Assembly: GCA_002786065.1 (NCBI GenBank)
Contig: NHNY01000024.1
Coordinates: forward strand, 295,166 to 359,165
Source of the DNA: Microcyclospora pomicola
Taxonomy: Eukaryota > Ascomycota > Dothideomycetes > Capnodiales
Reading direction: 5' to 3'
DNA: 64,000 nt
In this document: piece after piece, positions 51,250-64,000 of the stretch
Layout of the letters: each line of letters starts with the position of its first letter
Numbering within the stretch: position 1 is the first letter of the stretch
Program-made: the position numbers and the translations under genes
The notes under the pieces: model-generated
The model's database searches: none
What the model was told of the DNA's origin: nothing
The model's input: only the letters and a program-made list of their open reading frames with translations

Positions 51250-51261
51250 AGAAGAATCATG

Positions 51262-51342
51262 TGCATCGGCCGGGAATCGAACCCGGGGCTAGCCGACAAT
51301 TGTAAATGGCAACGGCTAATTTTACCACTAAACCACCAATGC
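51262..51342 (-). tRNA. tRNA-Gly (anticodon GCC) with a short intron
   Basis: 81 bp, minus strand. Acceptor arms GCATTGG/CCGATGC pair with one G-U; the T arm is CCGGG-TTCGATT-CCCGG; the D loop is AGTGGTA; and the anticodon stem AGCCG/CGGCT encloses 17 nt. This equals a 7-nt loop (TTGCCAT type, anticodon GCC) plus about 10 nt of intron just 3' of the anticodon, the standard eukaryotic position. A TTTT stretch follows within about 15 bp on the minus strand (plus 51247-51250), suitable for Pol III termination. The exact intron limits are ambiguous by 1-2 nt. Confidence 0.9.
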
Positions 51343-58199: not shown

Positions 58200-61100
58200 A
58201 AGCTACTACCACCTATCGAACTCAAAATTTTTGCCACTAGCGCGCCTTGGCGATAGGGAACTTTTCCACTGACCTCCAAAGTTTAAATATTATATACACC
58301 TTCAGACATACACTTTGTCTTTACATCAACATCCACAACGATTGTACTAGTATTCGGACTAGTATATACAGTTATTACAAAGCAAGCTAAGACATTAATA
58401 ACCTTAGGACCAAAATAAATACTAGTTCGATTCCTAGTACAAATACTAGTTTAGTTACTAGTATAGCGATACTACAGAATATAGATCTTAGGATTCGAAC
58501 ACAAGTCCTAGATAAGAAGATCTTTTATTAATATTATCCTATTCATCCTACGTTAATTAAAGAAGGGCTTAATAGTAATAGCCGACCTCTAAATTTAACT
58601 TAGCTTATAGCTAGAAAAAAGCCTAGAACAGCCCTTACTATAAGATAGTTAAAGCATACTTTTCACCTCCCTTAATACCTAACTTTAGACCCTAAAGGCT
58701 TTACATACTGTATTAATCTCGATAGGGTCCCTATCTAAGGCGAAGACAGAGTACCTCTATTCTAGCCTACTATAGGGTCTTTCTTAATAGTAATATTCTA
58801 CTAGTATGTCTACTAGTACTAATACTAGTATAGCATTAATACTCTTGTTCTTAGGTTAAAGGGTACCTAAAAAGCTCTTCTTTACCCTTCCTTCGCATAG
58901 TAAAGTGTAAACACTAAAGATAGAAATGCACTAGGATTAAAAGATACAAATATATGCCCTTAGAAGCAGCAACAAAACTATATACTAATGTTAATACAGA
59001 AACATAGGAAGCTCTTACGAAAACCCGACATCTTCTTAATAGAAGTAAGCTAAATATATTAGTTATAAACGTACATACAACTATCGTAGCAATCTGTAAA
59101 AGATATAAGAAACAGATTGTGTGCACCCTATAAAACGAGACTTGTTATCTAGTCTTTAATTAGCTTAGGGAGGTAATAAATAATTCCTTACTAGTTTTTG
59201 TACTAGTATCGATACTAGTATAACTGCTAACCTAATATAGGACCTCGATAGCCGACATAGAGCCTATATCTATTGTACTAACTTTGTTTAAGGACATTTA
59301 AGTATATACGAGAATTATTAATGTATAACATATTAAAGAGAGCATTAGATCAATATTGATCTCTTACTAATATACTTATAACAGTACCTTAAAAACAATA
59401 TACTAGATTACACTTCCTATTGCCCTATCTACGAGAATTAGCAATTAAGGATGCCTAACTGCAGTATGTATCTTATTAAGAATACTAGTATTAATACTAC
59501 TACTAATACTACTATTTAGTAGGTGTCCTCTACAGCTATAGTAAGAAGGGCAAGCTTGTTAAAGTTGAATGTATAGTCGAGTTTGATCTAGTTATTCTAC
59601 TTAACCTTACTATTGTGCAGAACTAGTATGCACTATTTATATTAACTAGTATATACTTACATCTGCTACTATTACTATCTCGGACTCCTTAAGACCTTTT
59701 AAATAAGGTTACTTAGGTAGTGTAAAGAGCATAAGATAGCACTCTTATAAATAGTATAAATAATACCTCTACTAGTACGAATACTAGTATACTTATATTA
59801 ATATCTATCTAGTAACCTTCCTTCGCTCTAGCTTCTTATAGGAGTTTCTTTAGAGTAAAGAAGTAACATCTTTAACAGAGCTTTACCCTTTATTTGCAAA
59901 CAAATTACATATACAGGCAATAATACATTATTAGAGATTACTCTTTTACCCTTCTAGAGAATACTTTATAGGTATTCAATTCGAGTACTCTTAACAACTG
60001 CTTAACCTAGATAAGGTTCGTCTAATTACTAGTTCTTATACTAGTATACTAACTAGTATCTAGTAATACATCTAGGGCCTCTAGGACGACGAATATAGCC
60101 CTATAATAATCTGCTTCTACTAACGACAGGCTAATATGTTCCTTAATTAAGGGACATTTAAAGTCGATATATCCTTTAAGCGAATTTAGCAAAAAGATAT
60201 AAATAAGATCATCTTCGCAGTATTAGAGCAAGAGCAAGGCAAAAGTAAGCTTCTAATACTAGTCCTAATACTAGTATATTAACTATCTAAACAGTTTACA
60301 CTCTTATATAAGCATATATAGTTAGAGAGAGTACAGAAGTTTATTAAGTAATGTTTGAAAGAGTGTTTTCGTTAATTGCAACACGGACTAGCAGAGCAGT
60401 ATAGTAGCGATTTTATCGCCTAGAAGGGAACGGGTTTTAAGCAGTAATAATAGATATAGGCGCAGGTTAATTAAAAGGTACTAGTATCGATACTAGTATT
60501 AATTAAGGCTTACTAACTAATAAGCTAGGTTTTAGTTTATACCTCGCAATATAGGATCCCCTATATCGGAGCTAGATAGAACAGGTCTAAAATACTATTG
60601 TTTTTTACTATATCTACCTAGTAAGATCAATTAATCAGGTAGCTTTAGCTAGAGAATTATCTACCCTCTAGAGGGAGATGTTCTCTATTCTTATAGCTCG
60701 AAGTGCGGACTTATACTACTAGATTCTACAACAGATTGTATATAAGCGAAGATACTATTCTCTATACTAGTATTTATACTACTTACTTACTAGTTAATAG
60801 CACATAACTAAAGGTGTTAGGATTAGGCTCGGCATAAGGCTTACCTAGCTATTGTAGCTAGGTTGAATAAAGTGTGTTTAAAGATGCTAGAAATCATCTT
60901 TAAACGTATTAGAAATCAAACAAATATAGTAGAGCAATCTGTATAAAAGAGTTACTTAATAGGTAAAAGACAGAACCTTCTTCCTACAATACTAAGGTAG
61001 GTACTAATACTGATACTAGTATTAGTAGTCTAAATCTAACTAAGCTAATAGTATTGCCCTTCTTAACTGCCGCGATGTTAATAAGTATTACTCTTTTAAA

Positions 61101-61224
61101 GTGTATAGTTAAAGGGACGAAGACCGCTCTACAAACATCGTTAACAGAATAAGTAGAGATCTAGGGAGGCTAAGTATATATTAACATTTTTAAGCTAGTT
61201 ACTAATTAGCATACTAGTACTTAT
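58200..61224. repeat. AT-rich, gene-less tract with the look of RIP-mutated repeat DNA
   Basis: From about 58,200 to 61,224 the sequence turns strongly AT-rich and TpA-rich, with no frame longer than about 70 codons and no recognisable protein. This is the usual appearance of repeat-induced point mutation (C to T at CpA) on old transposons in ascomycetes. It starts within 200 bp of the RWD gene's start and stops sharply at the LTR at 61,225. No original element can be identified by eye. The ACTAGT motif arrays within it are listed separately. Confidence 0.75.
58346..61218. repeat. Recurrent 12-bp-phased ACTAGT-N6 motif runs
   Basis: ACTAGT (palindromic) recurs with exactly 6 bp between copies, so at a 12-bp period, in short runs: 58346/58358; 58421/58433 (CCTAGT)/58445/58457; 58800/58812/58824; 59190/59202/59214; 59484 with variants at 59496 and 59508; 59771/59783; 60028/60040/60052; 60258/60270; 60480/60492; 60754 (ACTATT)/60766/60778 (ACTACT); 61003 (ACTAAT)/61015; 61201 (ACTAAT)/61213. 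The spacer is often A-T/C-N-A/G-A-T (ATTAAT, ACTAAT, ATCGAT, ACGAAT). Runs are spaced mostly 140-390 bp apart. Confidence 0.7.
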
Positions 61225-61500
61225 TGTCGCGGGCCAGGGAGTCCTGTAGTCACGCCGCGAGTAGAGAGGACTCCTCCTATGCGCAGTAGTAGGCAGAGGA
61301 GTCCTGTAAGGAGCGGAGGTGACAATTAGGAGTCCTTAGAGGCGTCGGACAGGCAAAACACACCAATCTACTAGTGGAAAATGATCTTAGCAGACGAATG
61401 TGTGTCTTATACTGTAAACTATGAAGGAAACTCTATGTAAAGGACGCTGATGACAGTGAGGGAGTCGCGCTCCCTAGTGCGGGAGTCGCGAGTCGTAACA
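61225..61500 (-). repeat. Putative 3' LTR of a minus-strand LTR retroelement
   Basis: 276 bp bounded by TGT...ACA (plus strand TGTCGC...GTAACA), starting exactly where the AT-rich tract ends and ending next to a G-rich tract (on the minus strand). Read on the minus strand it has a TATA-like AGTATAAGAC around 61,410-61,419. The plus strand carries four GGAGTCC/GGACTCC units between 61,238 and 61,345 and a GGAGTCGCG pair near its right end. The second LTR would be beyond the window, so identity of the two LTRs cannot be tested. Confidence 0.6.
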
Positions 61501-61514
61501 ACCCCCCCCCTACC
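61501..61514 (-). other. Putative polypurine tract next to the 3' LTR
   Basis: On the minus strand GGTAGGGGGGGGGT directly precedes the TGTTAC start of the LTR, the position where second-strand priming takes place in LTR elements. It lies about 120 bp after the last stop of the element's reading frame. Confidence 0.55.
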
Positions 61515-61630: not shown

Positions 61631-64000
61631 TCAGGACTGTTGACCGGCCGGCGAAGTCCGTCGGCGCTTTTTGTCACCTGTTTGTGGTGTCGTGGCGCGG
61701 CGTCTAGCAGAGGACTTCCCTTTGACCGGCGTTACGAACGGGTTTGCTTGATTAAGGAAGTTTGCGCGCGTTTGTGCCTTAGATGGAGTCGCGCTTGGCG
61801 TTAGGGACGAAACGTTCCTCTTCGGTGGGCCGAAGATAGGTAGGGGAATCTTTCGCGGGGTGGTGCTAGGCTTGACCTTCAGTCGGGCGACGCCTTTGGT
61901 CAGAGGTTCTGGTGAAGAGTCCGACGAGTAGAATTCCGGAGGTAAGAACGGGTCTTCGGGCGCTTAGCGGCGCTTGCGGGCACTGGATCGGCTCCCTAAG
62001 TGCGTGGGCTCGCCAAGCTGGATGGTTGGTGACGTAGGCGTCGTTATGCTAGAGTCTAATTCCGCTATGTAGGAGTCCTCGGCGTCGTCAGAGGGCTTAG
62101 CAGACGACGGCAGCAAAGGCGGCAGGAGCTTCTAGAACTGATTCAGAGGCACGAGGGATTTGGTCTTCTTGCCGTTGTCTAGTGCTTGCTGTAAGAGGTC
62201 CTTCTTTGCATTCTATATACCTAAGGTCCTGTAGGTTTCCGCGGAGATAGGCAGGGGTCGTGCAGGGAGTTCCTTAGTACAGTCCCTGATGAGGTTCCTT
62301 GTGAAGCGGGAGGCGGTGTCTCGTGCTGCTATAGCTGCATTGAGACTCGCGGCTGCGGAACCGTCCAATCGGTCTGCAATCTTGCGGAGAGGGGCGGAGG
62401 ACTCCCTGTCGCGTCCGTCGGCTATCGCGCGGAGGAGCTCGGTAGTGCGTTGCATGTATGATACGCTGGACAGTAGAGCATAGAATGAGACCTGTGCCGT
62501 AGTGTTGACTGCCTAGAGTGCGTTGGAGTCCCTTGCGTTGGTCACTGTCCAGCTACGGTCCGACATCTCCTTAGGAATGCTGCGGGCGCTCCGTTTGGGC
62601 AGGAGGATCTCCCCGACGTCCGGCATGTCTGTATCGGAGTCGTCTGGTGCTGTGGAGGCTCGTCTCGCAAAGGTTCGCTTAGCGGAGGGTCGCTTTAGCG
62701 ATAGGAACTCGACTTCAGAAGGGTATGTGTAGCACAAGGTCGGGTAGACATCCGGGTCGAGCGGGTTCTAAATCAGGTTGATGTGGCGACTGCTGAGCTG
62801 ACTCCAGTTGATGTCCTTAACGATAAGGGGTTGCGGCGGGTTAGATGTAACGTCCTGTTGGACGATAGCCTGTCGGACGTTATCAGGGATCCGTCTATCA
62901 GTGTCGAGCATAAAGTCGTAAAACTCGTCGGAAACCCGGTCTATATCCACTGTCGCTAGGTAAGTGACGAGGTTCCACATGATAGGATTGTCGAGGTCCG
63001 CGCCGCATATCTCGCCGTTAGGGACTTTCTGCATGTAGCTGTTATAGGTATACCTCTCCCGCGAGTTGGGAGAGGTCTAAGGGAAGGAGCCTGAGGCGTC
63101 TTTCTCGGTTTGGTCTAGCTTAGCAGGCTCATCACGGAAGAGGTGTTTGATCTGTGCCTCCCCTATAAGGGAGTATGCTTAGTATATCTTCATTAGGTAC
63201 TAAGTTCCTTTGACTTTCACGACCGCTAGTAGTCCTAATTGTCTGCGAGCAGGGTACGGAAAACCCTGGCTCGTAAAATCTCCACCCCAGTGCTTGCTAA
63301 GGTGCTGCTTGCTGATGATATTGAAGCGATAGCAAAGCTTAGCGAGTCGTCCGACATGCATATCCATTAGCATGACTCTGGAAGGCGGGAGTTGTTCTCT
63401 ATTTGGGAGGAAGGATGGTAGCTAGCAAATAGTCGTGTACATAAGGAGATGCGCGGTCCGCTTTATGTCCATCTCGGAATGCGATGCCGGCTTAACCTCC
63501 GTAGAGGCGGTCTTCGCGCCGGGTGTCTATAGCTTATAGAAGGGCTTGCGGTGTCCTTGCGTACGGGGGTGTGCCATTCCGCCGCTAGCTATTGTGGTGA
63601 CTGGTTGTGCTTGAATAGGGTTGTTGTGCAGGTTTGTAGTAACGTTAAGGGCGGCCTCTAAGTGTTGGGGCCAGAGGTTGCGGAAGTCGACAAGTCCGTT
63701 GACGAGGTTTCGTGCAGCGAGACCGTAAGAACGAGCTTGCAGGACTGGTTCGCGTGAGGTGAAGCCGTAGGTTTGCAGGAGAATCGGGTAAATGATTTCT
63801 GCGAGTGATTGAACGAGGGTAGTAATGATCGGGTAACCAGTGCGCAAGTCGGTGTACTTTTCTTCGCAACGCTTAATGGAGCGAAGATCGGCGGACTCGA
63901 TCGCGAAGTCAGAAGTCGAGCGGAAAAGCGAGAGGTCGCAAACCACGTCCTCGTAAATGGAAAGGACTTGATCGGACTCCTTCTAACACACCAGGTGCTT
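61631..64000 (-). pseudogene. Long single-frame relic (about 790 codons) with eleven in-frame stops; element protein of unknown type
   Basis: One minus-strand frame stays continuous from the right edge to a TGA at 61631-61633, without any frameshift. It is interrupted at 63983, 63527, 63422, 63200, 63179, 63077, 62768, 62513, 62213, 62132 and 61964 (lowest base of each codon). Nine stops are TAG, two (63179, 61964) are TAA and none is TGA. Between them the translation has normal protein composition: a globular first part (DLRSIKRCEEKYTDLRTGY, YGLAARNLVNGLVDFRNLWP), a middle with MWNLVTYLATVDIDRVSDEF, an Ala/Arg-rich helical stretch (SLNAAIAARDTASRF), and a basic Ser/Pro/Thr-rich C-terminus (RSSARKRR, DKKRRRTSP). 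I do not recognise RT, RNase H, integrase, protease or a CCHC knuckle. Position before a 3' LTR suggests an element protein, perhaps structural. Its N-terminus is outside the window. Confidence 0.7.

What the first reader, a model, noticed from the sequence alone, without database searches (positions are those of the whole stretch)
61631..64000. A 790-codon reading frame kept intact except for eleven TAG/TAA codons
Four separate minus-strand fragments (62213, 62513, 62768 and 63527 series) all lie in the same frame, and translating through the stops gives continuous protein-like sequence with no frameshift over 2.37 kb. Stops are nine TAG, two TAA and no TGA. CpG decay would make TGA from CGA codons, and random decay would add indels, so neither explains this. 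C-to-T change at CpA (RIP) turns CAG/CAA into TAG/TAA and, on the other strand, TGG into TAG, and fits well. A-to-I recoding of UAG to UGG, known in sexual stages of some ascomycetes, or stop read-through are less likely but testable. The encoded protein family is unknown to me.
Basis: partly seen in the sequence, partly recalled or inferred. Interest (0 to 1): 0.8.

Follow-up and report, generated by a model that had tools for sequence, protein, structure and literature searches.

The report
Mutation-killed fungal retrotransposon accessory gene
The long frame broken by eleven stops is the tail end of an extra gene in a fungal jumping gene that point mutation of repeats (RIP, a fungal genome defence) has destroyed; the stops are ordinary RIP-type damage, and only the unknown extra protein is of mild interest.

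Summary
In detail: window 61631-64000 (-) is one frame of 789 codons plus a terminal TGA, with 9 TAG, 2 TAA and no internal TGA. It is the C-terminal part of ORF3, an extra sense gene (about 1,450 codons, start inferred) between pol and the 3' LTR of a 12.7-kb Ty3/gypsy chromodomain retrotransposon; two copies have both LTRs and different 5-bp target duplications. Six independent copies differ almost only by C-to-T/G-to-A: 214 of 290 CpA sites are polymorphic, 101 of 382 CpG, 8 of 287 CpC, 6 of 377 CpT. LTR, spacer and pol show the same bias. Of 43 internal stop codons, 35 are Gln, Trp or Arg in another copy and 8 are fixed. Two sister elements encode a collinear ORF3 relative (27-28% identity), matched only in this frame. 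The ORF3 pieces searched match nothing in Pfam or, beyond chance, the PDB. Additional ORFs in fungal gypsy elements are already in print.

The parts
61225..61500 (-). 3' LTR, 276 bases, beginning TGTTACGACT and ending GCCCGCGACA on the gene strand
   Evidence: Shared end of the copies at 61225; 277-base direct repeats at both ends of two copies with 5-bp target duplications; exact ends read
61501..61511 (-). purine run (nine G on the gene strand) next to the 3' LTR, probable polypurine tract
   Evidence: sequence; the role is inferred from position
61631..64000 (-). C-terminal 789 codons plus the stop codon of ORF3, a sense additional ORF between pol and 3' LTR, with 11 internal RIP-type stops; continues beyond the contig end
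62864..63949 (-). stretch of ORF3 (residues 18-379 of the finding's frame) with a collinear relative in two sister elements, 27-28% identity
62357..64000 (.). 1,644 bases identical to the ends of contigs C53 and C40: assembly break in a repeat
58250..61224 (.). A+T-rich block (32% G+C) with RIP-like dinucleotide indices beside the element; not part of the element

Best explanation
The finding is the 3' part of a dead Ty3/gypsy chromodomain LTR retrotransposon (about 12.7 kb) in a fungal genome. While active, the element carried gag, pol and a third sense gene (ORF3, about 1,450 codons) before its 3' LTR. Repeat-induced point mutation then changed C to T on both strands of the copies, mainly at CpA and secondarily at CpG. 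RIP makes point changes only, so the frame stayed in register, and Gln (CAG/CAA) and Trp (TGG) codons became TAG/TAA; TGA is rare because it needs CpG change at CGA. Shown: copies, LTRs, target duplications, pol domains, mutation contexts, the codon at polymorphic stops in other copies. Inferred: gag and protease (by position, by similarity between the element families and by eye; no Pfam match), that the mutations came from the meiotic RIP machinery itself, the start codon of ORF3, and that ORF3 was an accessory protein of the element, perhaps nuclear (basic clusters near its C-terminus, no strong membrane segment).
For: Six independent copies: five are 2,370 bases long over the finding and one aligns over 2,368. 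Of 336 polymorphic columns, 203 are C/T and 126 A/G. Polymorphic over available sites in ORF3's C-terminal part: CpA 214/290, CpG 101/382, CpC 8/287, CpT 6/377. Same bias in the LTR (CpA 28/35, CpG 5/38, CpC 2/31, CpT 0/49), spacer (51/86, 22/84, 0/61, 5/76), pol (377/487, 150/613, 8/417, 16/588) and ORF3 N-terminal part (143/195, 67/262, 6/186, 5/249). RIP indices: window copy TpA/ApT 1.28 and (CpA+TpG)/(ApC+GpT) 0.86 against 0.53-0.61 and 1.25-1.33 over window 1-58000. Five-bp target duplications GCGAC and CTAGG at the two copies with both LTRs. Pfam: RVT_1 1.8e-11, RT_RNaseH_2 4.9e-7, Integrase_H2C2 1.4e-13, SH3_Tf2-1 1.8e-12 on unbroken C40 pieces, Chromo 9.1e-10 on a C53 piece with X at two stops. 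At fixed stops aligned with the sisters, 5 of 11 in gag-pol and 2 of 4 in ORF3 face Trp or Gln in at least one sister.
Against: Eight of the 43 internal stop codons of ORF3's C-terminal part are fixed in all six copies, and these are 8 of the window's own 11. The other aligned fixed stops do not face Gln or Trp: in gag-pol 6 of 11 face Lys, Arg, Asp or Pro, and at least one of these (Lys) lies in a well-aligned stretch; in ORF3 one of 4 faces Gly and one is TAG in both sisters. At 12 Trp codons of pol two are hit in all seven copies where 0.12 are expected if hits were independent (permutation P 0.0026); at 24 Gln codons none is. This points to hot spots or damage inherited from an already mutated ancestor. 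CpG changes make up about 30% of the polymorphisms (101 of 329), so a pure CpA mechanism is not the whole story; methylation-linked CpG decay may add. A RID-type enzyme in the host was not proven.
Confidence: 0.95

Rival explanations
1. The stops are recoded: A-to-I editing turns UAG into UGG in the sexual stage, or ribosomes read through, so ORF3 is a live protein.
For: Editing of UAG and UAA stops is known in filamentous ascomycetes (PMC11156358, start of abstract in the listing); 8 stops are fixed in all six copies and one is TAG in both sister elements.
Against: 25 of 35 polymorphic stop codons alternate with Gln codons, which UAG-to-UGG editing would not restore. The same mutation pattern lies in the LTR and spacer. 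Gag and pol carry the same kind of stops. CpA hits fall at codon positions 1, 2 and 3 in 53 of 77, 52 of 75 and 109 of 138 sites: only a slight excess at position 3, so little protein constraint shows since the copies parted.
Confidence: 0.01
2. Ordinary CpG decay of methylated repeats without RIP.
For: 101 of 382 CpG sites are polymorphic.
Against: CpA sites are hit about three times as often per site (214 of 290), CpC and CpT hardly at all. CpG decay alone would make TGA; only one of 43 internal stop codons is ever TGA, in one copy.
Confidence: 0.02
3. A cellular gene that decayed to a pseudogene, not a gene of the element.
For: No Pfam or PDB match ties ORF3 to retrotransposons.
Against: It lies inside an LTR-bounded element with target duplications, in 6 independent copies and, diverged, in two sister elements. 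All matches of three ORF3 pieces in this genome lie in copies of these elements (these searches score only the best candidates).
Confidence: 0.01

Closest known systems
Repeat-induced point mutation (RIP) of fungal repeats, e.g. Stagonospora nodorum (PMC3017866, passages read)
   Same: C-to-T with CpA preference on both strands, multi-copy repeat, raised TpA index
   Different: CpG is a strong second context here; the sexual-stage process and its enzyme were not tested
Fungal gypsy elements with chromodomain (chromoviruses); survey PMC2864245 (passages and the whole of section 5 read)
   Same: RT, RNase H, integrase and chromodomain in pol, LTRs, length within the reported 4.4 to over 13 kb. 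The legend of its Figure 3 lists an additional ORF of unknown function; the one plant element drawn there is described with two ORFs only, so I infer that the extra ORF belongs to a fungal element
   Different: No sequence comparison with those elements was possible; the place, sense and size of the ORF in that figure were not seen; ORF3 here is about 1,450 codons; clade not assigned
brtn of Boty (BcGypsy1) in Botrytis cinerea (PMC8365987, passages read; original paper seen only as a reference)
   Same: additional ORF in a fungal gypsy element in a genome with RIP
   Different: brtn is antisense by the title of its paper; ORF3 here is sense
Sense additional ORFs between pol and 3' LTR, the env-like class of plants and insects (PMC7264820, passages read)
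   Same: position and orientation
   Different: no strong membrane segment seen in ORF3 (highest 19-residue Kyte-Doolittle mean 1.58)

Membership tests
RIP-mutated repeat | C-to-T/G-to-A changes dominate differences between copies | tested here: met
   329 of 336 polymorphic columns are C/T or A/G
RIP-mutated repeat | CpA preference | tested here: met
   CpA 214/290, CpG 101/382, CpC 8/287, CpT 6/377; CpA first and CpG second also in LTR, spacer, pol and ORF3 N-terminal part
RIP-mutated repeat | raised TpA/ApT and lowered (CpA+TpG)/(ApC+GpT) against the rest of the window | tested here: met
RIP-mutated repeat | RID-type methyltransferase and sexual cycle in the host | tested here: inconclusive
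   three PF00145 matches over the cut-off in the genome; one has motifs that recall RID/Masc1 (from memory, not tested); a PDB search with its piece gave no hit at E up to 0.001; sexual cycle not testable
Ty3/gypsy chromovirus | LTRs TG...CA and target-site duplication | tested here: met
   (2 copies with both LTRs)
Ty3/gypsy chromovirus | RT-RNase H-integrase order with chromodomain at the end of pol | tested here: met
   the integrase core rve match (25.1 bits) is under its curated cut-off 32.6
Ty3/gypsy chromovirus | gag and aspartic protease | tested here: inconclusive
   no Pfam family over its cut-off in the gag and protease pieces searched; position, conservation in the sisters and a DTG triplet seen by eye fit
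Ty3/gypsy chromovirus | placement in a named clade by an RT tree | not tested
   no named fungal elements were at hand
Env-like additional ORF | sense ORF between pol and 3' LTR | tested here: met
Env-like additional ORF | membrane-spanning segment or signal peptide | tested here: inconclusive
   hydropathy scan only, highest mean 1.58 over 19 residues; no dedicated predictor was available
A-to-I edited fungal gene | UAG edited to UGG in RNA | not testable with these tools
   no RNA reads; the genomic evidence speaks against

The most novel reading that the evidence does not exclude
ORF3 founds a protein family without known relatives: a very long sense accessory protein of a fungal chromovirus lineage, kept by selection in at least two subfamilies while evolving as fast as or faster than Gag (27-28% identity in its alignable part and no match of its 423-codon upstream stretch in the sisters, against 36-38% for Gag and 69-73% for the integrase pieces). 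That would fit a nuclear or host-facing role such as countering silencing.
Probability: 0.35. Interest if true: 0.45.

Novelty: new member of a known kind. Interest (0 to 1): 0.25.

Why it matters
It shows that what looks like a recoded gene is a clear, countable case of RIP-type decay, with the copies that prove it in the same genome. The one open question is what the long ORF3 did for the element: additional ORFs in fungal gypsy elements have been reported, one as of unknown function.

Tried and rejected
Pfam: eight unbroken ORF3 pieces (two from C40, six of the window's twelve) and one X-marked piece of the window's first 423 codons: no family at E up to 1. The stretch 61967-62131 and the shorter pieces near the C-terminus were not searched on their own. 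PDB by sequence with three ORF3 queries: no hit or three hits each at E 1 to 2.7. Structure prediction of two unbroken ORF3 pieces without alignment: mean pLDDT 37.3 and 41.7, useless, so no fold search was run. IMG/VR viral contigs: 600 pattern stretches, none a relative. Paper searches for an additional ORF in fungal gypsy elements; none of the listings or passages seen names this ORF3, but only open-licence papers are held. Passages of PMC3248453 and PMC3538342 gave no such ORF. With short flanks only one LTR match per copy was found, and I took the element for one without LTRs until. My first stop count read six loci in the wrong orientation; one search replaced it. Contigs C53 and C40 were not counted as separate copies of the finding, because their last 1,644 bases are identical to the window; for upstream parts they are counted.

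Full report
Observation. Window 61631-64000 on the minus strand reads as 789 codons followed by TGA, with nine TAG and two TAA and no internal TGA. The other five frames of the stretch hold 28 to 63 stops. The window's end is the end of contig C17 of a 23.4-Mb genome in 58 contigs. The window carries genes for a PH-GRAM-glycosyltransferase protein, a RasGEF, a cullin and a CDC48-like ATPase, which shows a eukaryote and fits a fungus; the species is unknown.

What it is. The stretch occurs eight times in the genome. Two of these, the ends of contigs C53 and C40, are identical to the window over 1,644 bases although they differ from each other at 25 of the 756 bases before it; this is an assembly break in a repeat, so six independent copies remain for this part. 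With longer flanks two copies, C25:459052-471767 and C20:216784-229499, are each 12,716 bases long with 277-base LTRs and different 5-bp target duplications. In the window the 3' LTR is 61225-61500 (276 bases), and the copy runs on the minus strand. Pol gives Pfam matches to reverse transcriptase, RNase H, integrase zinc-binding, the Tf2-type SH3 domain and a chromodomain, so the element is of the Ty3/gypsy chromovirus kind; gag and protease pieces gave no Pfam match over cut-off. The finding is the last 789 codons of a further sense ORF between pol and the 3' LTR. In the C40 copy the same frame runs upstream from the finding for about 660 codons, with one unbroken stretch of 423 (my count); the start codon is a guess. 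A spacer of roughly 560 bases separates it from pol (my estimate).

Why the stops. Among the six copies 336 columns of the finding vary; 203 are C/T and 126 A/G. By context, polymorphic over available sites are CpA 214/290, CpG 101/382, CpC 8/287, CpT 6/377 (columns where no copy keeps the C or G are not counted). LTR, spacer, pol and the N-terminal part of ORF3 show the same. Hits at CpA sites fall at codon positions 1, 2 and 3 in 53 of 77, 52 of 75 and 109 of 138 sites, so little protein constraint shows. Over the six copies 43 internal codons are a stop in at least one copy: 8 in all, 35 in some. At the 35, other copies have Gln (25; at one of these a further copy has Glu), Trp (7) or Arg CGG/CGA (3, two of them also with Gln). 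Three of the window's eleven stops are among the 35; eight are fixed. The part of gag examined (745 codons, 5 copies) has 7 fixed stops; pol (1,276 codons, 7 copies) has 5, of which the last lies at the end of the range; the 531 codons of ORF3 upstream have 1 (7 copies). ORF3 is thus not special. Where fixed stops align with the sister elements, 5 of 11 in gag-pol and 2 of 4 in ORF3 face Trp or Gln in at least one sister; the other 6 of 11 face Lys, Arg, Asp or Pro, and of the other two in ORF3 one faces Gly and one is TAG in both sisters. At 36 Trp or Gln codons of pol supported by a sister, two of 12 Trp codons are hit in all seven copies against 0.12 expected (P 0.0026), and none of 24 Gln codons is: hot spots or inherited damage. 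The two copies with different target duplications are separate insertions, so inherited damage would mean that an already mutated element moved; I cannot decide between the two.

Sister elements. C10:37788-49950 and C14:389027-401172 are about 12.15 kb with LTR matches of 184-185 bases. The RNase H-integrase piece is 71-73% identical to ours, RT 67-73%, the protease-RT piece 45-47%, Gag 36-38%, and ORF3's C-terminal part 27-28% over 318-393 aligned positions. DNA comparison finds no ORF3 match there, and of six frames of the finding only the named one matches (E 5.6e-24 and 1.3e-14; next best 0.26). I take this as a sign that ORF3 was a protein under selection while the elements were alive. 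The 423-codon upstream stretch found no counterpart in the sisters. ORF3 pieces had no Pfam relative and only chance-level PDB hits, no strong membrane segment, and basic clusters near the C-terminus in the window copy.

Host machinery. Three C5-cytosine methyltransferase domains lie in the genome. One recalls RID/Masc1 by motifs from memory; this was not tested. An integrase search gave 47 matches; only one, in C40, has no stop, and 3 of the 47 contain a TGA, one each, so this kind of damage is not confined to this family.

Known or new. RIP is well known (PMC3017866, passages). A survey of fungal gypsy elements reports lengths of 4.4 to more than 13 kb and, in a figure legend, an additional ORF of unknown function (PMC2864245, section 5 and passages); I infer that it belongs to a fungal element. 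brtn of Boty is antisense (PMC8365987, passages, reference title). Sense additional ORFs are known from plants and insects (PMC7264820, passages). The searches listed no paper on this ORF3. I therefore file it as a new member of a known kind. The stops are ordinary; the unknown protein gives it modest interest.

Noticed in passing
window 58250-61220: A+T-rich block (32% G+C, TpA/ApT 1.75, 27 ACTAGT sites) next to the element, probably older, heavily RIP-mutated repeats.
   Followed up: partly
window 62357-64000; ends of contigs C53 and C40: Identical 1,644-base ends of three contigs while the sequence just upstream differs between C53 and C40: a collapsed repeat at an assembly break.
   Followed up: yes
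L043/L044 (C10:37788-49950) and L045/L046 (C14:389027-401172): Two sister retrotransposons with a collinear, fast-diverging ORF3; by eye their ORF3 has a Gln/Pro-rich stretch and a Lys-rich tail, though the basic-cluster pattern did not match in C10.
   Followed up: partly
C17 left copy of the finding (L003); L020 (C40): The C17 left copy has 76 of 203 C-to-T but 26 of 126 G-to-A changes. In C40 0 of 24 Gln but 4 of 12 Trp codons of pol are hit, yet over the longer segment C40 has more C-to-T (47) than G-to-A (26) changes, so this is no plain strand effect.
   Followed up: no
L049, L050 (C22) and L051 (C14): Three cytosine-5 methyltransferase domains, two of them about 10 kb apart in long open frames on contig C22.
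   Followed up: partly
window 51261-51342 (-): ARAGORN reports a tRNA with an unassigned anticodon; probably a weak call.
   Followed up: no
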